A DNA stretch of 64,000 nucleotides from Liolophura sinensis (Eukaryota; Mollusca; Polyplacophora; Chitonida; Chitonidae). Position 1 is the stretch's first letter. Each line of letters begins with the position of its first letter. The stretch lies in contig NC_088300.1 in NCBI RefSeq assembly GCF_032854445.1, positions 72,142,984 to 72,206,983 on the forward strand, in the 5' to 3' direction. The notes beneath the pieces are model-generated. The model saw only the letters and a list, made by a program, of their open reading frames with translations, was not told where the DNA came from and searched no databases. Positions 2,972 to 58,421 of the stretch are shown in pieces. Position numbers and translations under genes: made by a program.

Positions 2972-5900
2972 CTGCAAGTATAAAAGCATTTGGATGTATT
3001 CAATAATTTCACGAAAGGTCACTTTGTTGACAGTTTTATGCACCATTGTGTTGTGTGGAAATTCACCAATGAAATATAGGAATTCAATTGGACTTTCTTT
3101 CCATTTTTTGACTCCTTCAAAACCCTGACATTGTTTCGCTGTAAAGTATACAATTTATTTAACTGCACCGAGCTGGGAGAACCTGCAGAGGCTTGGGGAG
3201 AACCTGCACTGAGCTGCACAGAGCCTGTACTGAGCTGGGGAGAACCTGCAGAGGGTTGAGGAGAACCTGCACAGAGCTGGGAGAACCTGCAGAGGGTTGG
3301 GGAGAACATGCAGAGGGTTGGGGAGAACCTGCACATTGCTGGGGAGAACCTGCAGAGGGTTGGGGAGAACCTGCATTGAGCTGGGGAGAGCCTGCAGAGG
3401 GTTGGGGAGAACCTGCAGAGGGTTGAAGAGAACCTGCAGAGGGTTGGAGAGAACCTGCACAGAGCTGGGGAGAACCTGCACAGAGCTGGGAGAACCTGCA
3501 GAGGGTTGAGGAGAACCTGCACTAAGCTGGGAGAACCTGCACAGAGCTGGGGAGAACCTGCACTGAGCTGGGAAGAACCTGCAGAGGGTTGTGGAGAACC
3601 TGCACAGAGCTGGGGAGAACCTGCACTGAGCTGCACAGAACCTGCACTGAGCTGCACAGAACCTGCACAGAGCTGGGGAGAACCTGCAGAGGGTTGGGGA
3701 GAACATACAAAGAGCTGGGGAGAACCTGCACAGAGCTTGGGAGAAACTGCACAGAGCTGGGGAGAACCTGCAGAGGGTTGGGGAGAACATACAAAGAGTT
3801 GGGGAGAACATACAAAGAGCTGGGGAGAAACTGCACAGAGCTTGGAAGAAACTGCACAGAGCTTGGGGAACCTGCAGAGATCCACAAGGAAGTGGCAGAT
3901 AGGCTGGGTGAAACTGCCTATTGCTGCAGTTTTCACTGATCAGACTATCATTAAAATGTGTTTTGGGGTAACCCCCATGACCCTCCAAAAGCGGACTATT
4001 CCTTTCTTATTACTCTCTCCACATTAACTTCTTAATCTCATTAGCCAGAGTAAAAAAAATTGCCTAATCACCTCTCCTATTTTTCCGATAGATGGATTAG
4101 TTTCCTAAAAGCTATAATTCTTCAACCTTTTTGCATGTTTGCAAGGTGTTTATTCAAGTATATTCTGAAGGCATTATTCTGTGTAGACTGATATTTTTTT
4201 TGAAGCCCCGAAATTGGCCTACCCAGCCAATGTAGTTTTGCCTCCAAAATTAAATTAAAAATGTGTATAAATTGCACTGAAAGTTGCTCTTTCATATGTG
4301 AAAAGGTTGAGAAATTAGGGTAAATATTTTTGTGAACTGTTAAGACTGTGTTGACAAACTATACCTTTGGTCTGACCCCCAGGAATCCACTACAGATTGG
4401 TGCCCCACATGCACACACTGTCTTCTCATTACCCAAACAATCCAGGTTGTAGTTGAAAGTAAGCTCAGATTCTGCAACACAAAATGATTTGCACTTAACT
4501 GATTAGCACTGTATACTGCAATCAAGAATTTTACATTAACTTCCAGGATAACAATCATATTTATGGGTGGCCGAGAAATAACAATCATATTTATGGGTGG
4601 CCGAGAAATAACAATCATATTTATGGGTGGCCGAGATATAACAATCATATTTATGGGTGGCCAAGAAATAACTAGAAATCTGAGGACATAACAAAAGGAG
4701 ACAGTATTATTTATGCGGGTTGGTTGAGGGAGAATACAGTATACCAACGCATCGAGTGTGGAAATCAAGTCAGCTTGATGGCAATCAATTTTCACACTCA
4801 CCATGTAAATACTTTGTATCAAGCTCAACCAACCACGAGAATGATTTTATTATCCTGAAAAACTAACTAACTAAAACTGAAAAAAAAAGTTGTACAAAAT
4901 CTAATTTATATAGAAATACCAATTTGTTGGTCTCATCCTTCATGTATGTATCACTCCAATGCCTTGCAAAGACCTATTTTACATCAGTTTCTTACAGCTA
5001 TTCCAACAAAATTGTATGTTGGAGGAGTGTTGGTCATTGAACAACTCTTACATCTGAAGCTAGAATTTGTCAAATTGTTACAGTGAAAGGAGAGAGCATG
5101 TCAAAGGCCTGGCAAGGTTTAGGCTTTGAGTGAAGGGTGTTTGATATCGTCGACAAATTATTCTGACTCTGAACACGGGTTTTAATGTTCGAATAATACC
5201 TCTTTATTGCACACGAACAAAAGATCATTTCATAAAAAATATGCCTGAAGGTGAAAACAAGAAAGCAAGCAGACTGCAAATATAAATGTCCCCTCTTCCC
5301 TCCAGAAAAATATAAAAACAGCATGATCAGCCATTGCACAGTATTAAATTATTTTTTTAGGAGATTGAGTGTACTTGTGAGTGTAAGTGAGACGCAGATG
5401 AAACAAAAGACATCTTCACAGAGATATCAATAAAAACGCGGACAAATGCATGGAAAGGGATGCCATATATTCATCCACATTCATCACTTCAGATCATTTT
5501 CGACACTTTGTAAGCGTTTTAGAATCCTACACATTAGCTTTTACAGACACCTAACATCATATAATCATCAGTCATATATGGTTGGTTGCTTTGTTCCCCA
5601 GCAGTATTTCAGCTCATATGACAGCAGCCAGTAAATTATGGCGGGAGAAAACCAGACAGGGCCTGGAGGGAACACATGCTCCTCGGCAAGCTTCACCGAC
5701 AAAGGCTTACCCACTTAAAGCCAAAGAGAATACAGCACGATTTGGATTCTAGCCTCAACTTCACTGGTGGGAGACTCAAGCAATTGTCAGATGACAACTT
5801 GGACACAGAGGGTGCTGTGTAACTTTGAGAATCCTACAATACATGTATGCCGTATAATACCAGAGATACACTCAGCCACAGAGGGTTCTGTGTAACTTTG

Positions 5901-8900
5901 AGAATCCTACAGTACATGTATGCCATATCATACCAGAGATACACTCGGCCACAGAGGGTCCTGTGTAACTTTGAGAATCCTACAGTACATGTATGGAGTA
6001 TCATACCAGAGATACACTCGGCCACAGAGGGTCCTGTGTAACTTTGAGAATCCTACAGTACATGTATGGAGTATCATACCAGAGATACACTCGGCCACAG
6101 AGGGTCCTGTGTAACTTTGAGAATCCTACAGTACATGTATGCCACATCATACCAGAGATACACTCGGCCACAGAGGGTCCTGTGTAACTTTGAGAATCCT
6201 ACAGTACATGTATGCCATATCATACCAGAGACGCACTCGGCCACAGAGGGTCCTGTGTAAGTTTGAGAATCCTACAATACATGTATGCAGTATAATACCA
6301 GAGATACACTCGGCCACAGAGGGTCCTGTGTAACTTTGAGAATCCTATTTGCATGCCATATTATACCCGAGATACACATATATCCTGCTGTATGGACAAG
6401 TGCAGACAACTACTCAAATAATCAAAATGTGACAAAATTATCTAACACTGCATCACCTCAGGTTATCTTGCACAATTGGGAATTAAAGAAACTCTGTGCT
6501 TTACTTGTATAAGGCAATGTACTTAGCAATTTGAAAAATGTAGGAAGACCAATTTTTCAAAGATAAAAACAGCAGCATGCTATGCACAATAGCCACTGGT
6601 CGGTTCTTTTGTCTCAATTTCAAGTCTTTTCCAAGCTGAACTACAAAAACCACTAACTTTCAAGGCTTTTCAAGGCCTGGAAAGGTTACTTTCAAATTCC
6701 AGGCTTTCCAAGGTCTGTCAGGCCAAGATATGCTCAGCACAAATTTAAGAGAGATGGACTGACAAAGAAAGAGATTTCTATATGTCTCTCATTAAGAGAT
6801 GCGGAGTCAAAGAGCCCATGGTTATGCAAACAGGTTAGGTCAACCCCGTTTTCACAGGTATCAGTGGTGAAATTAAGGTACTATTTAGATTTAACAGTGG
6901 TTAAATTTTACATTGGACACTCCAAGTACAGCAAGCACCAGTACTCTTTGGCTGAGTAATCAGGCGGTAGAGCCATAATCTGCGGCACCCGCTTCTATCC
7001 CTGTCAATTTGATCAACAAATAAAGTTTTATCAGCCCACTTAACTGATGTAGATGGAATAACATCACTATCTTTTATACTTTTTTTTTTCTATGTCATTT
7101 TGCTCGAACAGAAGTCATTCGCCCAATTTTGAATATGCGTAACAACTGCACAAAATGAACGATAAACAAACAGCCCCACTGTCAGGACCCCTTATCTTTG
7201 GTTAAAAGACCCCATCCACTGCCCAAACAAGACTAGCACTTACCGGCTGGTATATCCTGGGCAGCAAACAGTCCAACCCTGACTTCTCCGTTGATTGTCC
7301 ACTTCTGAGTCTCAAGGTTAGGCTGACAGCTGTGGTTCATGAATCGAGACAGGTTACCCTTGGGGCCAGCATCAATTATCCTGAGAAAAAACAAATCAGT
7401 TTTCTGACCTATAGATTTTTAATCTGAGAATTCTGACTTTCTCAAGCAATGAAAAACAACTCGCAGAAAAAGACAGCCGCTTTCTCAAAATTTTTGAGTC
7501 ATATTTCTCGTAATGGTTTACACAAATGACCCTGTTCTGGAGGTATATGTTTCATAAAGACACATGATTTTGGAACCTATATAAGTACACCCACCAGGAT
7601 CCATTTTCAATAGGCTTCTGGGCCCAAAGTAGATACATTAAAACCTCAAAATGATGAACTCTATAAATGGCACATTCTGTAAATATACACATGTAGTGTT
7701 AATAGTATGTAAATCAGTCATCCATGAAGGGCGTACATATACATGTAGTTCTGAAGTATCCAACAACCCTGGTGTGTTACCTGTTCTTGTCAATTGTCAG
7801 CATGTAGAAGTTGGTGATGTTTTCTTCATGAGCCTTAACAATTCTTCTCCTGCATTCTTCTTCATCCACCAATTCACCAACGTACTCGTTCACAAACTGA
7901 CCCTGGTTAATGTAATACACCAGCTGATTTAATACAGTGTTTACTCATTCACAAATTGACCCTGGGCAATGTGGTACACCAGCTGATTTAATACCGTGTT
8001 TACTCATTCACAAATTGACCCTGGGTAATGTGGTACACTAGCTGACCTAATACCGTGTTTACTCATTCATAAATTGACCCTGGGTAATGTGGTACACTAG
8101 CTGACCTAATACCGTGTTTACTCATTCACAAACTGATCCTGGCTAATGTTATACACCAGCTGATTTAGTAACGCATTTACTCATTCACAAACTGACCCTG
8201 GCTAATGTACTACACTAGCAGATTTAGTAACGCATTTACTCATTCACAAACTGACCCTGGGAAATGTGGTACACTAGCTGACCTAATACCGTGTTTACTC
8301 ATTCACAAACTGACCCTGGCTAATGTTATACACCAGCTGATTTAGTAACGCATTTACTCATTCACAAACTGACCCTGGCTAATGTACTACACTAGCTGAT
8401 TTAGTAACGCATTTACTCATTCACAAACTGACCCTGGCTAATGTACTACACTAGCTGATTTAGTAACGCATTTACTCATTCACAAACTGACCCTGGGTAA
8501 TGTGGTACACTAGCTGACCTAATACCGTGTTTACTCATTCACAAACTGACCCTGGCTAATGTTATACACCAGCTGATTTAGTAACGCATTTACTCATTCA
8601 CAAACTGACCCTGGGTAATGTGGTACACTAGCTGACCTAATACCGTGTTTACTCATTCACAAACTGACCCTGGCTAATGTTATACACCAGCTGATTTAGT
8701 AACGCATTTACTCATTCACAAACTGACCCTGGGTAATGTAATACACCAGCTGATTTAGTAACGCATTTACTCATTCACAAACTGACCCTGGGTAATGTAA
8801 TACACCAGCTGATTTATTACCGTGTATACTCATTCACAACCTGACCCTGATTAATGCCATAAACTAGCTGATTTAGTAACTTATTTACTCATTCCCAAAC

Positions 8901-11900
8901 TGACCCTGGGCAATGTATTACACCAGCTGATTTAATACTGCATTTGTGCTGACACTGAAAGGTGAGATAAGAGACGCGCTCATTTCCCAAGTCTCTACAG
9001 ACAGTATCTAGAGCATAGCCATGTCCAGAATAGTTTTCACAATTAACAGACGAGTTCATCAACAAGACTTGAAATAATTTAAAGACGGTGTGTGATACGA
9101 CTGTCGAATTTTCCAGCTACCCACAGTTAAAAGTTACTGTGTTAGGTATATATCTGTTTCTTCCTACACCAGTCAGCCCGTCAAAGTACTATTGAGTGCA
9201 GTACACTGCCCTTAACCCGCTGCTTATTTCCAGGCTTGATGAAGGCTTAGCTACACTGGTCTATCAGAATATTCCACCTAGTACTTTGCATGAATGTATG
9301 AATATTAAATTTGCACCATCTGTTACTTTTCAAATCACTTACTACAGAATTCTTCAGCTTCAGTGCAAATTTCACTCTCTCATAAAGTGAAAATGGAACC
9401 TTACGTTCACTTATATGTATCTAACGATAAATTTCCTCTGCACAGTTTGAAAATGTGCCCTCAGATGAAGACATGGTGCAGTGTGTGTGTATCTACCTTT
9501 TTGATATCTACCAACGTTTTGAGTCCCCACCCTCTTCCTGCTGTCCTGAAGGGGGTAGATTTTGGGTACTCTCGTTTCTGGAATCTCTGGTTCATACATT
9601 TCTCTCCGGCGGGGCAGACAGCTGGGTGACATTCATACATCAGCATGCGGTTGACACACTCCGAGTCTGGCCCACACGGACTGTCTTGATCTGGTCGACA
9701 CTCACACCTGGGCAGCTCAGCAAGGTCTGGCTTGTAGATCTGGACATTGCCATATGGCGCATTGACCTGAGAAATACACAATAATCAACCTTCACACATA
9801 CTCAGGCAGGGCAAAAGCTTTCTGAAATTTGTACATTAACTAGTCTCCATTAGGCTCCTTTCCAAAATAAATGCCTTAAATTTCCCTTCTTGAAACATCT
9901 GACATAGTAATGGAAAAATATTCATTGGCGTCAAGAAATTCTTTTTCCCACCCAGTTATTGGAGTACAAGATTGAAAGTGGAGCATCATACTTTCCCCCC
10001 AACACTCATAAGGACTCTTTCTGATGCTTATTTTTAACAAAAAATTGCATTTAAATGACAAGCAGGTTGCAATGTGATAGAGCTTAACTGGAAAAAAAAA
10101 AACAATACAAAACATTGAAACATTGATGTGGTGTTATTTGTCTTATTACCTCGTCATTGAATTCTGCAAGTCAGTATCACAAAACACATCATGCAACAGT
10201 GGTTTGCCTGTATTTATTTGAGATTCATTGCACTTGAACGCTATGAAGAACACTTTTACAGAAATATCTCCTATTAACCCACTTTAAGCCATGAACATAT
10301 ATGATTTCATCATGTTTGACAACGATCTCTTCCTTCATGGGAGACTGGCTTATTGAAAGGAAAAAATGCACGTCAAACTTCAACTTTTCCATCCTTTCCA
10401 CATGAATGAAAAAAAATAGTCATTTCACTTCCTACGTCACTTTTAAAATGAACGAAGGCGTAATTTGGTGTCTACTTTGAGTCATTCAGTGGAAGGTATT
10501 CCTCTCAATAAATCTGCAAGGATGGTGTCTTACCATATCATATCACAGAACAAATGAATGAATCCAAGCAAAAAACAGCAGCAGTCTTACAAAAGCCTAA
10601 AATGTAGTACTGTAGCAAAATTTTTTAAGAACTTTAGTAACTGTTGAACCGTGGAAAAAAAAAAAGAACACTCTACGAGTTTGTTATCCAATTAAGCTGG
10701 TGACCATCAAGTTCAGAAATCCACACCTACCTTTATAAGTTTGAATGGAGCAGGTTTCTTTTCATTTTTCTCTACATCCTGCTGAGCTTTATTTTCCTTG
10801 GCAGCCTTCCAGATTCTGAATGCCTTTATTCCCTGCACTATAGCTGCAAACAGAGCAGGCAAATGGTGCAACAGCATTGTGATGGAAGGTAAACAGTATT
10901 TTCTTGGCAATGTAGAAAAAAACAATAACATCAGCCAATAACAGCCATGTAAATGTTGGTCATAATGATGTTTTTTCCTCCAATCTGTAGCTAATTACAG
11001 TGTTGAAGGGCACTATCCTGTACTTCACATTTTAGTGATTTATCTGATTGGTGTCTTAGGCCCTACTCAAGAATATTTCACTTATAAGACTGTAGCCAGC
11101 ATTATGGTGGGAGGAAATCAGGCATACCTCACCTGCCATGTCAGTCTTGAAAGTACCTTTACTTTTTTACCTTTTGGGAAGGGCGTATCTGACACAGTAA
11201 CACCCCCTCACGTAAAGCTAAAAGTTATCCAACTAAAGTTTGAATCCAACTTTCTGTCAACAGTACCCTTATCAAACAATTGTGATGCAGGCCTCATATC
11301 TATATCTCGCAAAGAAGCGAAGTAAAGCTCTACTGATAATAACCAGTCTATTGCCAGAGTACACACCTATGTGTACCTTGACATTTTTTTCATGTACACA
11401 TAGCACATAAGACAGGAATATTTGATGAATAAAATGATGGTCTTTGCAAACACAAACCTTTCCTGAACACAACAGCTAAGTTCTTATTGCCCGATGACTC
11501 CTTGGAAGACTTGTCCCCTTCTTGGAAAAGAAATACCCTAAAAACAAAATTTGATTGCTGTTTACTTTACCTATACTCTAAATTTTCACTTTACGCCACT
11601 GACTTTTACAGGTGGAGGAAACCTGAGTACTCAGGGTATACTGACAACCTTTGACAAAATACTGATGAACTTTCCAAAATGCAGCATACATCCAGCATAC
11701 GAAGTTGAACAACTTTGCAGAACTGTGCAAAAGGCCACATAAAGGAAGTTGTTTGTTTCTTGTTACCAAGGCAATGTAAACAAGAGCCAGAAATCTAGAA
11801 ACTGACAGTTGAAGGCCAGGATGAAACCCAAACATGCTTTTCCTTGTCGTTTAGAGCTGGGTACAAATCAAAGTGATTTATATGTTTTCATTCAAACTTA

Positions 11901-47100: not shown

Positions 47101-50100
47101 TTTCTGACGGCAGTTCTCCTCCACATAAGACTTCAGGACTAGTTCTTGAGCAAAAGAGAGTCGCCCACAGCGGATTTTGGCGCTGACTCTATTTATAATT
47201 TATCAACTTGAGGTACATATTAGAATTTGTTTTATGGCATGCACGTGCAAGGAAATGCATACTCTCTTTGATGGTATTTGATTGAGATTTAAATTTACTT
47301 CTCCTTTAAAGTTTACCAAGCAATAAACAACAAAATAAGTAAATTTTCCTGAATCTCTCTATATCACTAACAAATTTTTGAGTGGAGACAAGGTATTGCA
47401 TGTAACAAAATTATAAGTTGTAAAGAAAAAAGAATATTTTTCTTAATCATAACCATCAGATATTTAAGTAGTGCTTGACTGAGGTATGATTCAGCACTGC
47501 ATAAATTACCAGTCAGACAACCAAAGAGGTGGCCTTGATTGTATTTCAGTGGCTAAGGTTGCCACAGATGTGATTCAACCCCTGGTCAGACGGATGGATG
47601 AGGCCAGCAACATGGACCCTACAGTCCTTCAGGCACTTTTTGATAATGGGGTGAGAAGTTTTACTCAATCAAGCAGAAGTTCGCAGATATCTGGCGGGAT
47701 GAACGGGATAATTCTGACAGGGAGGTTTTCATGAATGTAATGCATTAGTGACTTTAGGCTTTGTCACTTGATCATTGTCAGGGTGAAATACTACTATTTT
47801 TATATTTCTTGTAGATCCATCCTAAAATTTTCTATCTTTTTATTTATGAAAATGCAGCATCATTCATGGTATTCATAAACTTTCATGTTTATCACCTGGG
47901 ACTTCATATTACTCTCAGTATGTGTCAAGTTTATTTATTTATTTAATGTTCTACACCGTACCTAAGAAAATTTCACCGACATAGCCACGGAGCCCCCCCC
48001 CCCCCCCCCATATGTCTCAAGTTCACACCACATAAACATGATGTGATTAAAGAACGCCAGTTAGGCAGAGCGATGCAGACCTCACCTGTAAACACATCAG
48101 TATTTTGTGGGACAGATATTAGTAGTGTTGAAAGCAGAATATTACATTTATTTACCAGCCTTTTGGAAATGTGAAGATATGAGTATGTTCATTAGAAGCT
48201 CACCGTGTGAGAAAACAGAAATTCAATATTCCTGCTACAATTACATACATACTGGATAAATTGAGCAGGCTAGGTTTCTCAAAAATGAGAAGAAATAGGG
48301 TGTATTGAGTGTTTGAATATCTCTTCTGTGTTTGTCCAGCTGATGGGAATCGAAGTGGAAGAGGAGTATGGTGGTACAAATGGCACATTCTTCATGGCCA
48401 ATCTGGTGATAGAGGAACTGGCCAAAGTGGATGCATCGGTCAGCGTGATGGTCGATGTCCACAATACACTCATCATAAACCTGCTTCGCCAACACGGCAC
48501 CACCGAGCAGAAATGCAAATACCTACCTAGGCTGGCCTCCAATATGGTAGGAAAACAGTGATGAATATTTTGATATAATTTAAGGTTTGATTCACTGTCA
48601 GTATGCAGATGAGTGAGTTCTTCATTAAATGTTAACACAGTGGCTGTCTTTGCTGCTGATAATCCCCTTTTCATGTAGATATAAGGGTGTGTTTGTATTG
48701 TGCCATTTTCATGCTGAAGTGTCCTAGTCCCAAGACTTTTACTTTGCTGTGACCATACTGTGTGATTGTTGATTGTTTGAGCCAATTTAAGGACGAACAG
48801 CACATAGTCATTTACTAAATGACTGCGACTGGTTCTGTTTTATTCACTCATGCTAAGTGTATAATTTATCTCACTCTCTCCCTCTGTTTGTGGGGCCTAG
48901 GAGACAGTAAATGGTCTTTGACAAACGCATGACTTTTCGTGCCATCCAACGTTAAGACCACATGTCCTCCACAGAGATGGTGGGCATATCTTCTTGTCAC
49001 ATGTGGGAAGAGGTCCATGGTTTACCTCCGGCACTCCAATATCCCCTTAAGCCTCCAGCTATAATACTGATTGTCATTTTGCAAGTGAAAAGTTCTTGAG
49101 TACATGTATGGTGTTAAATAACAAATAATTGAATTAAATTGGTCTCACTGTTTCAGGTAGGAAGTTTCTGTCTGTCCGAAGCAGGATCTGGATCAGATGC
49201 CTTTGCTATGAAGACTTCTGCTGTGAAACAAGGAGACCATTATGTGCTGAATGGCACTAAGCTGTGGATCACCAGTGCTGAGCACTCTGGGGTGTTCCTG
49301 GTCATGGCTAATGCCAAACCCACAGATGTAAGCTCAATATTTATTACACCCTGAATGGCACTAAGCTGTGGCTCACCATTGCTGAGCACTCTGGGGTGTT
49401 CCTGGTCATGGCTAATGCCAAACCCACAGATGAACGCTCAGTATTTATTACACCCTGAATGGCCCTGAGCTGTGGCTCACCATTGCTGAGTTGTCTAGGG
49501 TGTTCCTGGTCATGACTAATGTCAAACCCACAGATGTAAGCATAGTATTTATTACACCCTGAATGGCACTAAGCTGTGGCTCACCAGTGCTGAGTACTCT
49601 GGGGTCTTCCTTGTCAGGTCTAATGCCAAACCCACAGATGTAAGCTCAGTATTTATTACACCCTGAATGGCACTAAGCTGTGAATCACTAGTGCTGAGTA
49701 CTCTGGGGTGTTCCTGGTCATGACTAATGCCAAACCCACAGATGTAAGCATAGTATTTATTACACCCTGAATGGCAATAAGCTGTGGCTCACCAGTGCTG
49801 AGTACTCTAGGGTGTTCCTGGTCATGACTAATGTCAAACCCACACATGTGAGCATAGTATTTATTACACCCTGAATGGCACCAAGCTGTGACTCACCAGT
49901 GATGAGCACTCTGGGGTCTTTCTCTTCATGGCTAATGCCAAACCCACAGATGTAAGCATAGTGTTTATTACACCCTGAATGGCACTAAGCTGTTGATAAC
50001 CAGTGCTGAGTACTATGGAGTGCTCCTTGTCATGTCTAATGCCAAACCCACAGATGTAAGCTCAGTATTTATTACACCCTGAATGGCACTAAGCTGTGGA

Positions 50101-53100
50101 TCACCAGTGCTGAGTACTATGGGGTCTTCCTTGTTATGTCTAATGCCAAAGCCACAGTATTTATTACACCCTGAATGGCACTAAGCTGTGGATCACCAGT
50201 GCTGAGTACTCTGGGGTGTTCCTTGTCATGTCTAATGCCAGAGCCACAGATGTAAGCTCAGTATTTATTAAACCCTGAATGGCACTAAGCTGTGAATCAA
50301 CAGTGCTGAGCACTCTGGGGTGTTCCTGGTCATGTCTAATGCCAAACCCACAGATGTACGCTCAATATTTATTGCACCCTGAATGGCACTAAGCTGTGGA
50401 TCACCAGTGCTGAGTACTCTGGGGTGTTCCTGGTCATGACTAATGCCAAACCCACAGATGTACGCTCAGTATTTATTACACCCTGAATGGCACTAAGCTG
50501 TGGCTCACCAGTGCTGAGTACTCTAGGGTGTTCCTGGTCATGACTAATGCCAAACCCACAGATCTACGCTCAGTATTTATTACACCCTGAATGGCACTAA
50601 GCTGTGGATCACCAGTGCTGAACACTCTGGGGTGTTCCTGGTCATGGCTAATGCCCAAACCCACAGATGTACGCTCAGTATTTATTACACCCTGAATTGC
50701 ACTAAGCTGTGGTTCACCAGTTCTGAGTACTCTGGGGTGTTCCTCATTATGGCTCATGCTAAACCCATTGATGTAAGCTCAGTATTTATTACACCCTGAA
50801 TGGCACTAAGCTGTGGATCACTAGTGCTGAGTACTCTGGGGTGTTCCTGGTCATGACTTATGCCAAACCCGCTGATGTGAGCTCAGTATTTATTACACCC
50901 TGAATTGCACTAAGCTGTGGCTCACCAGTTCTGAGTACTCTGGGGTCTTCCTTGTCATGGCTAATGCTAAACCCATTGATGTAAGCTCAGTATTTATTAC
51001 CCCTTGAATCGCACTAAACTGTGGCCCACCAGTGCTGAACACTGTGGGGTGTTCTTGGTCATGTCTAATGCCAAACCCACAGATGTACGCTCAGTATTTA
51101 TTAAACCCTGAATGGCACTAAGCTGTGGATCACCAGTGCTGAGTACTCTGGGGTCTTCCTTGTCATGTCTAATGCCAAACCCACAGATGTACGCTCAGTA
51201 TTTATTGCACCCTGAATGGCACTAAGCTGTGGATCACCAGTGCTGAGTACTCTGGGGTGTTTCTGGTCATGACTAATGCCAAACCCACAGATGTACGCTC
51301 AGTATTTATTACACCCTGAATGGCACTAAGCTGTGGATCACCAGTGCTGAGTACTCTAGGGTGTTCCTGGTCATGACTAATGCCAAACCCGCTGATGTGA
51401 GCTCAGTATTTTTTATGCCTTGAGTGGCACTAAGCTGTGGCTCACCAGTGCTGAGCATTCTGGGGTGTTCCTGGTCATGACTAATGCCAAACCCATAGAT
51501 GTAAGCATAGTATTTATTACACCCTGAATGGCACTAAGCTGTGAATCAACAGTGCTGAGCACTGTGGGGTGTTCCTGGTCATCACTAATGCCAAACCCAT
51601 AGATGTAAGCATAGTATTTATTACACCCTGAATGGCACTAAGCTGTGAATCAACAGTGCTGAGCATTCTGGGGTGTTCCTGGTCATGACTAATGCCAAAC
51701 CCATAGATGTAAGCATAGTATTTATTACACCCTGAATGGCACTAAGTTGTGGAGTACTCTGGGGTGTTCCTGGTCATGACTATGCCAAACCCACTGATGT
51801 GAGCTCAGTATTTATTATGCCCTAAATGGCACCAAACTGTGGCTTACCAGTGCTGAGCACTCTGGGGTCTTCCTTGTCATGGCTAATGCTAAACCCACTG
51901 ATGTACGCTCAGTATGTGTTACACATGGGTAAGAAGGAAGTAGGAAGTCCTGCTGGTACACAGTAATTTGAACTGTTACTGAGTGATCTAAAGTGTTTTG
52001 CTAAGAGTCTGGTTACATATACATATTCACATGTATAACCCTGCTCTTAAACTGTAGTGGTGAATATATTGATGTGCTTATTACTTAAGACCAATAAGTA
52101 CAAGTGAAATAAGTGAGTACAGTGTTAATCTCCAATCAGATAAATCAAATTATTGCTTGTTTGTTTCAGGGCTATAAAGGAATTACAACATTTATAGTAG
52201 ATCGTGATACTGAAGGCCTGAGCATAGGCAAGAAGGAGGACAAGCTTGGCATCAGAGCATCCAGCACCTGTCCTGTACATTTTGATAATGTCAAGGTGAC
52301 ATGTGTTTATGTATTTTTACAACTTAAAATAAAAGCAACCTGCATATGTGGGTTTCCATCAGGCCTTGCCAGATTCCACCCCCCCCCCTCCACCGTCCCC
52401 ACCATGATGTTTGCCACTGCTGTTTAGGTGAAATATTCCGGAGTATGGCTTAAAGCACCAATCTAATAAATGAATGAATAAATATAAGTACATTAAATAC
52501 AGCAGGAATACACTTAGATATGATAAGAGCCCCCCCCCCCCCATCCCCCGACAATTCGTGATTCTAAAGACTTTGCTTTGTTCTCTACATGTAGGTTCCG
52601 GAGTCCAATATCTTGGGGAAGTTTGGACATGGGTATAAGTATGCCATTGACATTCTGAATGAAGGGCGTATTGGAATAGCCTCACAGGTAAAGATAAGAT
52701 AAGGGCACAGGGTAGTCCAGCAAATGGAAAGTAGAAAGCTAATTTATTCCAGAAAAGAGAGATTTTATTACCTGTATAGCCCAGCATTTTGGGACTTGAC
52801 TATCAATGTGGTCCCGCAGTGGGGGATTGAATACCCCTGTAGTTCAGCAATGGGGAACATGAATACTAATGTCGTTCAGCAATGGGTGATTGAATACCAG
52901 TGTAGTCCAACGATGGGGCAATTCGGAATGACTGAATGACTCAGGAGCCTCCCACCAATGCAGTCACTGTGAGTTCAATTCTTGCACATGCTGGCTTCCT
53001 TTCCGTCCATGGGAAGATCTGCCAACAACCTGCGAATCGTCGTGGGTATCCCCCAGGCTTTGCCCTACATCCTCCCACCATCATGCCATCAGCAAAAAAA

Positions 53101-56100
53101 GTGAAATATTCTTGAGTGTGGTCTAAAATACCAGTCAAATAAATCAATAATAAATGAATTGTCCAGCAGTGGGAACTTGAATAAGTGAGAAGTGTAGATT
53201 TATGTATCATTAACAGTGGTATTTAATATGGCTGAGTTGTTTACATACTTAATCATGCATTTTTGTTTGCTTTATTTTTAGATGTTGGGTCTGGCTGAGG
53301 GCTGTTTCAGTGCCACAGTTCCTTACACAAAAGAAAGGAAGCAGTTTGGTAAACGCATCTGGGATTTTCAGGTAGGAACAAGGTCGTTCTTGTATGTACA
53401 AATATCCGTTTTTGGCTGTGTGTACATCTCACCTTGTGGACAGTTAAAAGTTTAGTTATTTATGTATTTATTTGACTGGAGTTTTATGCTGCACTCAAGA
53501 ATATTTCACTTGTATGATGGTGGGAGGAGAAATCCACCATCATCCATGCCATCTGCAGGATGAAGGCAGGCCTTCCCACATACGACTGGAGTTTATAAGT
53601 CTACTAAATTACCAAACATGAAGGGCTGCTTTGGTGGGTTGAACTAAAGACCTGATCAGCTTTTAATTTTGCCAAAGATCTGTTGATCGTCTGCATTGTC
53701 ACTTTTACTTTTTCAGGAAACTTTATCGTTTAAGGGATATTCTGGGCTGACTTTACAAATACTCCCAATAAATCTCTCCCAATAGGGCAGACATGTATCT
53801 TGGGCTGGAAACTTGTTTTCTATGAACAACTCTGTAAATTAAAGCTATTGTCTTTCACCTAAAAGACCACAACTCGTGTTTGTTACAGTCCATGCAGCAT
53901 CAGATTGCTCACGTTGCCACACAGATTGAGTGTGCCAGGATGTTAATCTATAATGCAGCTCGGCGGAAAGAGGCTGGACTTCCATTTATAAAAGAGGCTG
54001 CCATGGCCAAGTACCACAGTGCAGAGGTATGGGCATTGGAATGAGGAAGGTTTACCTAGTGAGTTACATAGTCTGTTGTCATGATGGTTTTATGGGAAAA
54101 CTGATTGTGTAGTACATACATGTATATACATGTATCACAAGAGAAAACTGGCAAGCCCAGCTTGATCCAAGTAGCCAGTATGCGGGAAAGGAAATCCCAT
54201 TGCTATACTGTGGGGCTGTTTTTCTTAAAGTGTGTATGGTAATACTAGGTATGGATTGTTGTTAAAATAACTCCTTTTTTGGCATAAGGGAGGCCATTTC
54301 AGATCTAAGGGCTAATTTGGTTACATGATACCATTCATAATCCATGTATTCTGTACATGTACCTAATGACTCCTCATCATCATATGACTGAAAAATTGTC
54401 AAGTATGACGTAAAACCCAAGGCTACATACCGTATACTTGTTTAGGTACAGTACACCGCTAGAATACCAGTGAGCTCTCTTTTTACCAGGGGGTTTTGAA
54501 AGCAGTAAGTGCTTGACAGAACAGAACATGTGGGACTGTTTGCACTGTCTTGCGTTCGTTTGAAGACCACATCTGTAACCATGCAAGTCACACCATCAGT
54601 CAGTGGGTTTTGTCAGTAATTTGCCAAAAATAGGTTTTTTTACCCTAGGCACTCTGGTTAGGAGCACCCAGAAAACTGACTGCCATCTCATCTGTTCTTG
54701 AGTAAATTGTTTAACAACAATTAGATACTGTAATTCTTCAACTTTTTCACATGTTTTCCAGGTGTTTATTCAAGCATATTCTGAAGGCATTTTTCTGTGT
54801 AGACTGATAAAATTATACTTTTTGTGAAGCATGAAATCGACTGATCCAACCAATGCAGTTTTTGTGTCAAATTATATGGGTGCATAAATTACACTGAAAA
54901 TTGCTGTTTCACAAGCGAAAATGTTCAGGAATTAGGGTAATTATATAAGTATATCCTCTCCACTACCCATGTTTGACATTCTCTGTATGTAATGTAGGTG
55001 GCGGCACTTACAACCTCCAAGTGCATAGAGTGGATGGGAGGGGTCGGTTTCTCTAAAGAATACCCAGTGGAGAAGTTCTACAGGGACGTCAAAATAGGTA
55101 AGTTGATCAGTCATGAGGGTTATCGTGTTGTCTGTTAATCCTAACTGGCTGAGTGGTCTATAGTTCCTCAGTTGAGACCTCTAGGACTCTACCTAAGAGA
55201 GTCTTCGGATTGGGTCTAGGTAAATAGCTGCACCTCATACAGGAAAGGTGTCTCAGGTAGATGTGACACTGGTCAAGGAAGCCAGGTAAATAGCCACAGC
55301 TAATACAGGATGAAGTTTGTCAGGTAGATGTGACAGTTGTCAATGAAGCCAGGTAAATAGCTACGGCTAATATAGGATGAAGTGTGTCAGGTAGATGTGA
55401 CAGTTGTCAAGGAAGCCACGTAGATAGCTACAGTTAGTACAGGATGAAGTTTGTCAGGTAGATATGACAATTGTTAAGGAATCCAGGCAAATGGTTAATA
55501 CAGGAGAAAGTTTGTCAGGTAGATGTGACAGTTGTCAAGGAACCCAGGTAAATAGCTACAGTTGATACAGGATGAAGTGTGTCAGGTACATGTGACAGTT
55601 GTCAATGAAGCCACGTAAATAGCTACGGCTAACACAGGATGAAGTTTGTGAGGTAGATGTGACATTTGTCAAGGAACTCGGGTAAATAGCTACAGTTAAT
55701 AGGTCTATAGTTCCTCAGTTGAGACCTCTAGGACTTGACCAAAGAGAGTCTTCGGATTGGGTCTAGGTAAATAGCTGTACCTCATACAGGAAAGGTGTCT
55801 CAGGTAGATGTGACAGTTGTCAAGGAATCCAGGTGAATGGCCACAGTTAATACAGGATGAAGTTTGTCAGGTAGATGTGACAGTTGTCAAGGAAGCCACA
55901 TAGATAGCTACAGTGAGTTCAGGATGAAGTTTGTCAGGTAGTTATGACAATTGTTAAGGAATCCAGGCAAATGGCTAATACAGGAGAAAGTTTGTCAGGT
56001 AGATGTGACAGTTGTCAAGGAACCCAGGTAAATAGCTACAGTTAATAGGTCTATAGTTCCTCAGTTGAGACCTCTAGGACTCGACCAAAGAGGGTCTTCG

Positions 56101-58421
56101 GATTGGGTCTAGGTAAATAGCTGCACCTCATACAGGAAAGGTGTCTCAGGTAGATGTGACAGTTGTCAAGGAAGCCAGGTAAATAGCTACAGCTAATACA
56201 GGATGAAGTTTGTCAGGTACAAGTGACAGTTGTCAAGGAATCCAGGTAAATAGCTACAGCTAATACAGGAGGAAGTTTGTCAGGTACAAGTGACAGTTGT
56301 CAAGGAATCCAGGTAAATAGCTACAGCTAATACAGGAGGAAGTTTGTCAGGTAGATGTGACATTTGTCAAGAAATCCAGGTAATAGCCTCAGCTAATACA
56401 GGAGGAAGTTTGTCAGGTAGATCTGACAGTTGCCAAGGAATCCAGGCAAATAGCTACAGTTAATACAGGATGAAGTTTGTCATGTACATGTGACAGTTGT
56501 CAAGGAATCCAGGTAAATAGCTACAGCTACTACAGGAGGAAGTTTGTCAGGTAGATGTGACAGTTGTAAGGGAATCCAGGTAAATAGCTACACTTAATAC
56601 AGGAGGAAGATTGTCAGGTAGATGTGACAATTGTTAAGAAATCCAGGCAAACGGCTAACACAGGATGAAGTTTGTAAGTTGATGTGACAGTTGCCAAGGA
56701 ATCCAGGTAAATAGCCACAGTTAATACAGGAGGAAGTTTGTCAGGTAGATGTGACAGTTGTCAAGGAATCCAAGCAAATAGCCACAGCTAACACAGGAGG
56801 AAGTTTTGTCCGGTAGATGTGACAGTTGTCAAGGAATCCAGGTAAATGGCCACAGCTAATACAGGAGGAAGTTTGTCAGGTAGATGTGACAGTTGTCAAG
56901 GAATCCAGGAAAATATCCACAGCTAATACAAGATTAAGTTTGTCAGGTAGATGTGACAGTTGTCAAGGAATCCAGGTAAATAGCTGCAGTTAATACAGGA
57001 GGAAGTTTGTCAGGTAGATGTGACAGTTATCAAGGAATCCAGGTAAATAGCCACAGCTACTACAGGATGAAGCTTGTCAGGTAGATGTGACAGTTGTCTG
57101 GAATCCAGGCAAATAGCCACAGCTACTACAGGATGAAGTTTGTCAGGTAGATGTGACAATTCTTAAGGAATTCAGGCAAATGGCTAATACAGGAGGAAGT
57201 TTGTCAGGTAGATGTGACAGTTGTCAAGGCACGCAGGTAAATGGCTACGGTTGATACAGGAGGAAGTTTGTCAGGTACATGTGACAGTTGTTAATGAAGC
57301 CACGTAAATAGCTACGCCTAACACAGGATGAAGTTTGTCAGGTAGATGTGACAGTTGTCAAGGAACTCAGGTAAATAGCTACAGTTTATAGGTCTATAGT
57401 TCCTCAGTTGAGACTTCTAGGACTCGACCAAAGAGGGTCTTCGGATTGGGTCTAGGTAAATAGCTGCACCTCATACAGGAAAGGTGTCTCACATAGATGT
57501 GACAGTTGTCAAGGAAGCCAGGTAAATAGCTACAGCTAATACAGGATGAAGTGTGTCAGGTAGATGTGACAGTTGTCAATGAAGCCAGGTAAATAGCTGC
57601 GGCTAATGCAGGATGAAGTTTGTCAGGTATATGTGACAGTTGTCAAGGAATCTAGGCAAATAGCCACAGCTACTACAGGATGAAGTTTGTCAGGTAGATG
57701 TGACAATTGTTAAGGAATCCAAACAAATGGCTAACACAGGAGAAAATTTGTCAGGTAGATGTGACAGTTGTCAAGGAACCCAGGTAAATAGCTACAGTTG
57801 ATACAGGAGGAAGTTGGTCAGGTAGATGTGACAGTTGTCAATAAAGCCACGTAAATAGCTACGGGTAACACAGGATGAAGTTTTTCAGGTTATGTGACAT
57901 TTGTCAAGGAATCCAAGCAAATGGCTAATACAGGAGGAAGTTTGTCAGGTAGATGTGACAGTTGTCAAGGAAGCCAGGCAAATAGCTTACAGCTGATACA
58001 GGAGGAAGTTTGTCAGGTACATGTGGCAATTCTTAAGGAATCCAGGTAAATGGCTAATACGGGAGGAAGTTTGTCAGGTACAAGTGACAGTTGTTAAGAA
58101 ATCCAGGCAAATGGCTAATACAGGAGGAAGTTTGTCAGGTACAAGTGACAGTTGTTAAGGAATCCAGGCAAATGGCTAATACAGGAGGAATTTTTGTCAT
58201 GCACATTTGACAGTCAAAAAAGCCAGGTAAATAACCATAGCTAGTACAAATGAAAGTTTGTCAGGTGCTTGTGAAAAGTGATTTATGGTCGATTTAAACA
58301 ATGATAATCCAGTTCAGTAATTAGACATTCAATTCTTCTTTTTTCAGGAGCAATCTACGAGGGTACAGCGAACATACAACTTAACACCATTGCCAGATGT
58401 TTGGATATGGAAACTCGATAA
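44139..58421 (+). CDS. ACADSB: Short/branched-chain acyl-CoA dehydrogenase, mitochondrial, 11 exons, 430 aa
   Basis: FAD enzyme of isoleucine breakdown that oxidises 2-methylbutyryl-CoA and passes electrons to ETF in the mitochondrial matrix (family knowledge). Exons: 44139-44165, 45894-46059, 47550-47650, 48340-48546, 49157-49327, 52170-52295, 52595-52687, 53282-53371, 53889-54026, 54998-55097, 58348-58421. All GT-AG, phases agree, 1293 nt; human ACADSB has 432 aa. The N-terminus [20 protein letters not shown] is a basic mitochondrial presequence. The ACAD signatures [13 protein letters not shown] (exon 5) and [20 protein letters not shown] (exon 10) are intact. The catalytic base is Glu411 in IYEGTANIQ (exon 11). 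Within the ACAD family the closest match I recall throughout is ACADSB, including SPDEQMMK and NIQLNTIA. Confidence 0.95.
44516..45341. mobile_element. Foldback-type DNA element with ~310-350-bp inverted arms
   Basis: The left arm starts TAGCCCTGGATAGCC and the right arm ends GCCATCCAGGGCTA. The arms match through GGGTCCCC, ACAGTCGATTACT, TGCCCATCCAGCC, CACCTGACTGTTAAAATC, CCCAAAGGTAAAT and TGACTTTTCATTTATGAAAT, up to about 44860 and 45030. The flanks carry TGATTACGT (44507-44515) and TGATTACTT (45342-45350), a probable 9-bp target duplication. The left arm has an internal duplication of about 46 bp. No transposase. Long arms with a 9-bp duplication suggest a Mutator-like non-autonomous element. 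It lies in ACADSB intron 1. Confidence 0.8.
46353..46618 (+). mobile_element. Full-length tRNA-derived SINE
   Basis: GGCATCCATGGCTCAGTTGG, an A-box region with TTAGCGCGCTAGC, B box GAGTTCAAGTCC, ACCATAATGCTGGCCGCCGT, TATAAGTGAAATATTCTTGA and a (AAATC)n tail. Inserted in ACADSB intron 2, in gene orientation. Confidence 0.9.
46619..47549. other. ACADSB intron 2, remainder
   Basis: AT-rich intronic sequence up to exon 3. The polypyrimidine/acceptor is GTATTTCAG. Nothing else recognised. Confidence 0.4.
47930..47996 (-). mobile_element. Internally deleted tRNA-SINE
   Basis: TTTATTTATTTAATGTTCTA and ACCGTACCTAAGAAAATTTC from the tail join directly to GCCACGGAGCCCCC from the head end, so the body is missing. 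ACADSB intron 3. Confidence 0.6.
48930..49130 (+). mobile_element. Diverged SINE-like fragment
   Basis: CACATGTGGGAAGAGGTCCA, CCTCCAGCTATAATACTG and AAGTGAAAAGTTCTTGAGTA with an A/T-rich end resemble the SINE body and tail, strongly diverged. Just upstream of ACADSB exon 5. Confidence 0.4.
49328..51930 (+). repeat. 104-bp minisatellite made from ACADSB exon 5 and its splice donor
   Basis: About 25 units at 104-bp spacing (for example 49351, 49455, 49559) repeat the 3' part of exon 5, from CTGAATGGCACTAAGCTGTG to AATGCCAAACCCACAGAT, with the donor GTAAGC and about 20 bp of intron ending TATTTATTACACC. Many units keep GATGTAAGC; others have GATGTACGC or GATGAACGC. 104 is not a multiple of three, and in frame the first unit adds VSSIFITP then stop. 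Only the 5' member is true exon, because the exon's 5' half and acceptor are not repeated. Confidence 0.95.
52350..52482 (+). mobile_element. tRNA-SINE 3' fragment
   Basis: GTGGGTTTCCATCAGGCCTT, ACCATGATGTTTGCCACTGC, GGTGAAATATTCCGGAGTAT and a (AATG)n-type end match the SINE tail half, interrupted by a C-run. Confidence 0.65.
52926..53155 (+). mobile_element. tRNA-derived SINE, 5'-truncated
   Basis: ACTCAGGAGCCTCCCACCAA, B box GTGAGTTCAATTC, CATGGGAAGATCTGCCAACA, AAGTGAAATATTCTTGAGTG and a CAAATAAATCAATAA tail. ACADSB intron 7, sense orientation. Confidence 0.8.
53452..53592 (-). mobile_element. tRNA-SINE fragment (3' half)
   Basis: TATTTATTTGACTGGAGTTT, CAAGAATATTTCACTTGTAT and GGCCTTCCCACATACGAC in reverse orientation. 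ACADSB intron 8. Confidence 0.75.
54375..54428 (+). mobile_element. Second-family tail fragment
   Basis: CATCATATGACTGAAAAATT and AGTATGACGTAAAACCC match the tail of the family at 32215-32530. ACADSB intron 9. Confidence 0.5.
54726..54942. mobile_element. Small inverted-repeat element, family 2 (copy 2)
   Basis: Starts ACTGTAATTCTTCAACTTTT and ends with the inverted relative AAATGTTCAGGAATTAGGGT. The interior AGGTGTTTATTCAAGCATAT, TCTGTGTAGACTGAT and CATAAATTACACTGAAAATT parallels 4112-4324. ACADSB intron 9, just before exon 10. Confidence 0.65.
55120..58270 (+). repeat. ~67-bp minisatellite, ~45 copies, with interspersed longer block
   Basis: Fills nearly all of ACADSB intron 10. Units contain CAGGTAGATGTGACAGTTGT, CAAGGAATCCAGGTAAATAG and CTACAGCTAATACAGGAGGA, AGTTTGT. 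A longer block with GGTCTATAGTTCCTCAGTTG and GTCTTCGGATTGGGTCTAGG recurs near 55157, 55699, 56047 and 57389, giving a loose higher-order structure. Units resemble neither flanking exon, but each carries one or more CAGGTA steps that look like splice donors. Confidence 0.92.

What the first reader, a model, noticed from the sequence alone, without database searches (positions are those of the whole stretch)
7781..8950. NSD SET exon is the end member of a minisatellite of its own splice acceptor
The 59-bp units upstream of exon 7902-7781 (transcript sense) each repeat the acceptor (ACATTARCCAG) and the first 18 or so exonic bases. This gives about 17 decoy acceptors that look as strong as the true one, which itself has a poor pyrimidine tract. 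In most units the codons for GQFVNE are followed by TAA, so use of a decoy would stop translation inside the catalytic domain. The splicing machinery must pick the last site, or decoy use may regulate the amount of active enzyme.
Basis: partly seen in the sequence, partly recalled or inferred. Interest (0 to 1): 0.82.

Follow-up and report, generated by a model that had tools for sequence, protein, structure and literature searches.

The report
Repeated decoy splice sites in chiton
In a chiton genome a short repeat has copied the start of a histone-methyltransferase exon, splice site included, seventeen times into the intron before it; such repeated splice sites were described in amphioxus, and here they look like a common by-product of abundant minisatellites rather than a purpose-built switch.

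Summary
Before NSD exon 7902-7781 (minus strand) lie 17 tandem 59-bp copies of its acceptor plus 21 exonic bases. All 17 keep CAG, and all 17 would stop translation within ten codons. The true acceptor is weak; 3 of 17 decoys score higher, 3 about equal, 11 lower.

The genome matches a published chiton assembly (Liolophura sinensis). The structure is a "mirage", a minisatellite across an exon-intron boundary, described in amphioxus. The window holds a second: 26 copies of a 104-bp unit with a splice donor in an acyl-CoA dehydrogenase gene. Among 67 other sampled exons I found five more (5 of 134 edges).

Arrays cover 8.3% of sampled sequence outside domain hits and 1.0% inside, and overlap exon edges no more often than random placement (5 against 10.2). 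So nothing seeks out splice sites. In six of seven mirages at least one decoy equals or beats the true site.

Best reading: by-products of a minisatellite-rich genome, tolerated because splicing takes the exon-proximal copy by exon context (inferred). Regulation by decoy use has no support here, but no RNA was available. Known kind; no molluscan report found in the held library.

The parts
9497..9766 (-). NSD exon with the AWS domain and the start of SET; ends ...AAAAAG|GTAGAT
   Evidence: Pfam AWS E 4.6e-19 and SET 22.6 bits over a cut-off of 22.4 on the joined exons; PDB alignment; junction letters
7781..7902 (-). NSD SET exon ([11 protein letters not shown]...), the functional end member of the array; acceptor CATTAACCAG|GGTCAG, donor GAACAG|GTAACA
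7883..8945 (-). 59-bp minisatellite (also fitted as 177 bp); 17 decoy units, each 38 nt of intron end plus 21 nt of exon start, and the overlap with the true exon
   Evidence: TRF; unit table
7961..8905 (-). Decoy exon starts (first base after CAG) at 8905, 8846, 8787, 8728, 8669, 8610, 8551, 8492, 8433, 8374, 8315, 8256, 8197, 8138, 8079, 8020, 7961; each followed by an in-frame stop
7244..7380 (-). Next NSD exon (IIDAGPKGN...NHSCQPN...), so the SET domain continues downstream
   Evidence: read from open frames; junction letters
49157..49327 (+). Acyl-CoA dehydrogenase exon ([14 protein letters not shown]...AKPTD), functional first member of a donor-side array
   Evidence: profile hit PF02770; junction letters
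49247..51924 (+). Second mirage of the window: 104-bp unit, 26 copies counting the true one, each 81 nt of exon end plus 23 nt of intron start; 22 of 25 decoys keep GT
   Evidence: TRF
52170..52295 (+). Next acyl-CoA dehydrogenase exon (GYKGITTF...), its acceptor outside the array

Best explanation
It is a splice-site mirage. A tandem duplication that happened to straddle the boundary between an intron and the NSD SET exon grew, by unequal exchange or slippage, into an 18-copy minisatellite. Coding selection keeps the exon-end copy; the 17 intron-side copies are passengers that still look like acceptors. The right copy is used because it alone is continuous with the exon body and nearest its donor (exon definition). 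Shown here: the array, the kept decoy cores, the stops, the same layout in six other genes on both sides of exons, and no excess of arrays at exon edges. Inferred: the growth mechanism, and that exon context rather than site strength makes the choice in living cells.
For: Array and decoys. Seven mirages seen in this genome: NSD (acceptor) and an acyl-CoA dehydrogenase (donor) in the window, plus L010, L011 (acceptor), L018, L025, L070 (donor) among 67 fetched exons. Arrays of period 20 or more cover 8.3% of sampled sequence outside domain hits and 1.0% inside; 5 of 134 exon edges are overlapped against 10.2 expected by rotation, so background density is enough. In the three arrays tested the decoy cores are kept at or above the mean for any dinucleotide of the unit: NSD 17/17 (mean 12.4), L011 6/6 (mean 5.4), acyl-CoA dehydrogenase 22/25 (mean 20.8). 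Strength alone cannot choose: 28 of 71 scored decoys reach or pass their true site, in six of seven mirages. In amphioxus, published Adh3 data and globin RT-PCR suggest that mirages do not disturb regular splicing (PMC3087553, passages).
Against: No RNA from this animal was available. In L010 the true site is the best of the 8 scored, and in NSD it beats 14 of 17 decoys (11 of them by more than a bit), so strength may help in some genes. In L018 one of five scored decoys has lost its GT and a further unit lacks the site. In the NSD array, variants shared between units sit at 1 of 21 exonic and 11 of 38 intronic sites (Fisher P 0.04), which simple drift after duplication does not predict; the other window array shows little contrast (diversity 0.109 exonic, 0.128 intronic).
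Confidence: 0.82

Rival explanations
1. Decoy acceptors are used at a real rate as poison sites; the resulting mRNAs stop early and are degraded, so the array sets the amount of NSD enzyme.
For: All 17 decoys give a stop; 3 of 17 outscore a weak true acceptor; 9 of 17 carry a TACTAAA word, branch-point-like by recall, that the true unit lacks.
Against: Stops in retained intron sequence are expected by chance, so they are no signature (inference). The same layout occurs in kinase and acyl-CoA dehydrogenase genes at a rate no higher than array density predicts. Conservation across species could not be tested.
Confidence: 0.07
2. The array is raw material for a new intron or exon, as proposed for amphioxus globins: a unit may later become an exon.
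For: Units carry exonic and acceptor sequence; the model is published (PMC3087553, passages).
Against: In the NSD array the frame of each decoy stops within ten codons. Other donors inside the units were not examined.
Confidence: 0.05
3. Assembly artefact: a collapsed or inflated array.
For: Tandem arrays are error-prone; contig C99 carries at least seven cytochrome oxidase I copies about 15.5 kb apart, probably a mitochondrial concatemer.
Against: HiFi reads average 8.3 kb against a 1.06-kb array; units fall into recurring types rather than one copied block; the search found one matching place in the genome.
Confidence: 0.03
4. New units were repeatedly copied from the functional, coding-constrained end, or the exonic part of decoys is itself under selection.
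For: Shared variants at 1 of 21 exonic against 11 of 38 intronic sites (Fisher P 0.04).
Against: Singletons are even (5/21 against 6/38, P 0.50), against selection on decoys; the acyl-CoA dehydrogenase array lacks the contrast; no NSD decoy carries the AAC codon of the true exon, so the true copy has not been a recent donor.
Confidence: 0.1

Closest known systems
'Mirages' of amphioxus: Adh3, globins BflGb6 and BflGb9, troponin C, PGBD5 (PMC3087553 and PMC3902484, passages only; the 2002 Adh3 paper is not held and was not read)
   Same: Repeat unit spans an exon-intron boundary, on either side of an exon; many copies keep AG/GT signals; the functional copy is at the exon end; for BflGb6 the array edge is excluded from homogenisation.
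   Different: Another phylum. 17 and 25 decoys here, against 2 to 7 repeats in the globin and PGBD5 passages that I saw (Adh3 copy number not seen). A frequency is estimated here. No RNA or allele data here, whereas the passages report RT-PCR for globins and somatic instability for Adh3.
Internal tandem repeats at exon-intron boundaries of human segmental duplications (PMC2812944, passages)
   Same: Minisatellite expansion at gene boundaries that can activate cryptic splice sites.
   Different: There the repeats change exon or intron structure of recent paralogues; here the functional exon is unchanged and the extra copies lie in the intron.
Test genes with duplicated competing splice sites in splicing studies (recalled; not read)
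   Same: Several near-identical sites compete in cis and exon context matters.
   Different: Natural and many-copy here; not tested by experiment.

Membership tests
Mirage minisatellite (as described in amphioxus) | Tandem repeat unit spans an exon-intron boundary | tested here: met
   38 nt intron plus 21 nt exon per unit; junction placed by alignment to NSD structures
Mirage minisatellite (as described in amphioxus) | Decoy copies keep splice dinucleotides (many, not all, in the published cases) | tested here: met
   17 of 17 keep CAG
Mirage minisatellite (as described in amphioxus) | Functional copy lies at the exon end, outside homogenisation | tested here: met
   Only the last copy continues open; its AAC codon and the bases after GAGTA occur in no decoy
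Mirage minisatellite (as described in amphioxus) | Does not disturb normal splicing | not testable with these tools
   No reads at hand; public RNA-seq of five tissues exists (PMC11068029, passages)
Mirage minisatellite (as described in amphioxus) | Copy number unstable between alleles or cells | not testable with these tools
   One matching place found in the assembly, so no second allele
NSD H3K36 methyltransferase | AWS plus SET closest to NSD proteins | tested here: met
   Pfam AWS and SET above cut-off; best PDB hits are NSD-type entries, then ASH1L and SETD2
NSD H3K36 methyltransferase | PWWP and PHD modules around the catalytic part | tested here: inconclusive
   Matching peptides read by eye on the minus strand in order; no profile search was run on them

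The most novel reading that the evidence does not exclude
Splice-site mirages are pervasive in chitons, so that many genes carry one, and in NSD the number of decoy acceptors beside an unusually weak true acceptor sets how much productive mRNA is made: a heritable, fast-mutating dial on an H3K36 methyltransferase.
Probability: 0.06. Interest if true: 0.82.

Novelty: new member of a known kind. Interest (0 to 1): 0.47.

Why it matters
The reports of mirages that I found all concern amphioxus. Finding them in a chiton, at about 4% of the exon edges sampled, suggests that any animal with enough minisatellites in its introns will have them. That would be a large natural experiment on an old question: how a cell picks one splice site among near-identical neighbours. 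Decoys equal to or stronger than the real site sit beside it in several genes here; if the small sample is fair, many genes of this animal carry such arrays, and public RNA-seq could score them at once. It also warns that gene predictors may make false exons at such places.

Tried and rejected
Organism: I first took it for amphioxus because of the mirage literature; the mitochondrial contig and contig lengths showed a chiton.

Finding mirages by clusters of profile hits: the acyl-CoA dehydrogenase profile shows the window array as a ladder of hits and I saw no other ladder among its 38 matches; kinase (131 of 835 candidates scored) and SET (53 scored) listings showed none. Short exonic parts are invisible this way (the NSD array gave no hit), so I fetched exons instead.

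Sample: 67 pieces, chosen by hand from the three hit lists as partial-domain hits with an open frame up to 135 aa and E below about 0.01. Left out: hits in the window itself, two second hits that lie inside pieces already fetched, and one further acyl-CoA dehydrogenase hit (C12:21580705). The lists hold only best-scoring candidates, so the sample is not random. Exon edges are domain-hit edges except in the five mirage loci, where I used the splice site read by eye; this favours the observed count, which is still below expectation. With margins of 3, 5 and 8 bases the count is 5, 4 and 3 against 10.2, 10.0 and 9.9 expected (P of as few 0.06, 0.04, 0.01). Some edges may be gene ends, not splice sites.

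Arrays near exons judged not mirages: L033, L035, L042, L051, L064, L072 (wholly intronic) and L056 (repeat at what looks like a stop codon).

Codon positions in the acyl-CoA dehydrogenase decoys: minority bases 58, 24, 49 at positions 1, 2, 3, no third-position excess, so no sign of coding selection. Pattern counts of decoys drop units with deleted or much changed sites (at least one each in L010, L018 and the acyl-CoA dehydrogenase array), and the L070 array runs off the fetched piece. The donor matrix rests on 18 donors placed by eye. In one search the acyl-CoA dehydrogenase exon ends were set one base short; the shared stop lies in the first retained intron piece, so the result stands.

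Literature: ten searches were run. Eight bear on mirages; none listed a molluscan case, but searches showed 12 of 818 and 12 of 105 papers, and the library lacks most subscription papers. PMC7931591 (gastropod hemocyanin introns; passages) and PMC12005716 (chiton genomes; passages) do not mention the structure in the passages shown.

Full report
What is there. On the minus strand an NSD-type methyltransferase gene crosses the window. Exon 9766-9497 (AWS, start of SET) joins exon 7902-7781 in frame, and the joined 130 residues align over 129 residues to NSD structures without a gap at the junction. The 1,594-base intron between them holds a 59-bp minisatellite, 7883-8945, also fitted with a 177-bp unit. 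Each unit is 38 nt of intron end, finishing in CAG, and 21 nt of exon start; there are 18 copies, the last being the real exon. All 17 decoys run into a stop, 16 at codon 7 and one at codon 10; joined to the real donor they would make exons of 181 to 1,125 nt.

How strong the decoys are. I built an acceptor matrix from 23 other acceptors in this window and in sampled loci, placed by eye from conserved peptides and frame. The true NSD acceptor scores 2.19, lower than 22 of the 23. Three decoys score higher (8846, 8787, 8728), three within 0.1 bit, eleven lower. Nine of 17 decoys have a TACTAAA word upstream, where the true unit has TATTAAA. So the statement about equal strength is true for about a third of the decoys.

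Which animal. G000 has 632 contigs and 609,464,459 bases. A chiton assembly published as Liolophura japonica, later corrected to L. sinensis, has 632 scaffolds and 609,495,693 bases. The mitochondrial contig is 15,209 bases, the length reported for L. japonica (PMC12111177, passages). Its gene order is of the chiton type by recall.

A second case in the same window. On the plus strand an acyl-CoA dehydrogenase exon (49157-49327) is followed by 25 further copies of its last 81 nt plus 23 nt of intron with the donor. Of 25 decoys 22 keep GT, near the mean for any dinucleotide of the unit (20.8), and use of any of these 22 would retain an in-frame stop. Eleven of 24 scored decoy donors equal the true one.

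How common. I fetched 67 other exons (kinase, SET and acyl-CoA dehydrogenase hits), each in a piece of 2,701 bases, and ran TRF. Five have arrays across a splice site: L010 and L011 at the acceptor, L018, L025 and L070 at the donor. That is 5 of 134 edges, 3.7%, 95% interval 1.2 to 8.5%. L011 is the clearest: six decoys with a strong pyrimidine tract score 9.9 to 11.4 against 10.8 for the true site, five of them 0.9 bit below it. In L025 four of five decoy donors beat the true donor (7.74 against 5.96), and in L070 seven of seven scored are equal. Over all seven mirages 28 of 71 scored decoys reach or pass their true site; L010 is the exception, its true site being the best of eight.

Chance or targeting. 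Arrays of period 20 or more cover 8.3% of the sampled sequence outside the domain hits and 1.0% inside. Rotating arrays within loci gives 10.2 overlapped edges on average against 5 seen (P of as few 0.06; with wider margins 4 against 10.0 and 3 against 9.9) (an earlier run gave 3 against 9.9). So edges are not sought out; if anything they are avoided, as selection on exons would do. A genome rich in minisatellites is enough to explain mirages.

Evolution of the array. Among the 17 NSD decoys, diversity is 0.174 per site in the intronic and 0.043 in the exonic part; variants shared by several units sit at 11 of 38 intronic and 1 of 21 exonic sites (P 0.04), singletons at 6 of 38 and 5 of 21 (P 0.50). 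One reading is that older units were seeded from a coding-constrained exon end and have drifted freely since. The acyl-CoA dehydrogenase array shows little contrast (0.109 exonic, 0.128 intronic), so I hold this lightly. The true exon's AAC codon occurs in no decoy: the true copy has not seeded units since that change.

How it most likely works. In the three arrays tested the decoy cores are not being lost faster than other sites, although L018 has lost some. That fits decoys which do little harm and so are rarely used, though homogenisation within arrays could hide slow loss. In each of the seven cases the copy that keeps the reading frame is the one attached to the exon body. Exon definition would explain this; I infer it and could not test it. 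In amphioxus, Adh3 data and globin RT-PCR suggest that mirages do not disturb regular splicing (PMC3087553, passages).

What is known. Mirages were named in amphioxus (Adh3, then globins, troponin C, PGBD5; PMC3087553 and PMC3902484, passages). Eight searches of the held library that bear on them listed no molluscan case (two of these listings were cut at 12 papers). The finding is a new member of a known kind, apparently in a new phylum, with an estimate of how frequent it is.

Noticed in passing
window 49247-51924: Donor-side mirage in an acyl-CoA dehydrogenase gene, 26 copies of a 104-bp unit; two large mirages of opposite kind in one 64-kb window.
   Followed up: yes
L010, L011, L018, L025, L070: Five further mirages among 67 sampled exons; L011 has six strong decoy acceptors nearly identical to the true one, a better test case than NSD.
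   Followed up: partly
window 3163-3880, 5797-6347, 55218-58266: Other minisatellites (21, 73 and about 67 bp). Adding the rows, the window has about ten arrays of period 20 or more, roughly 9 kb in all.
   Followed up: no
G000 contig C99: At least seven cytochrome oxidase I copies about 15.5 kb apart, probably a mitochondrial concatemer or an assembly artefact.
   Followed up: no
L056 1446-1537: A 32-bp repeat, about three copies, over what looks like the stop codon of a SET gene.
   Followed up: no
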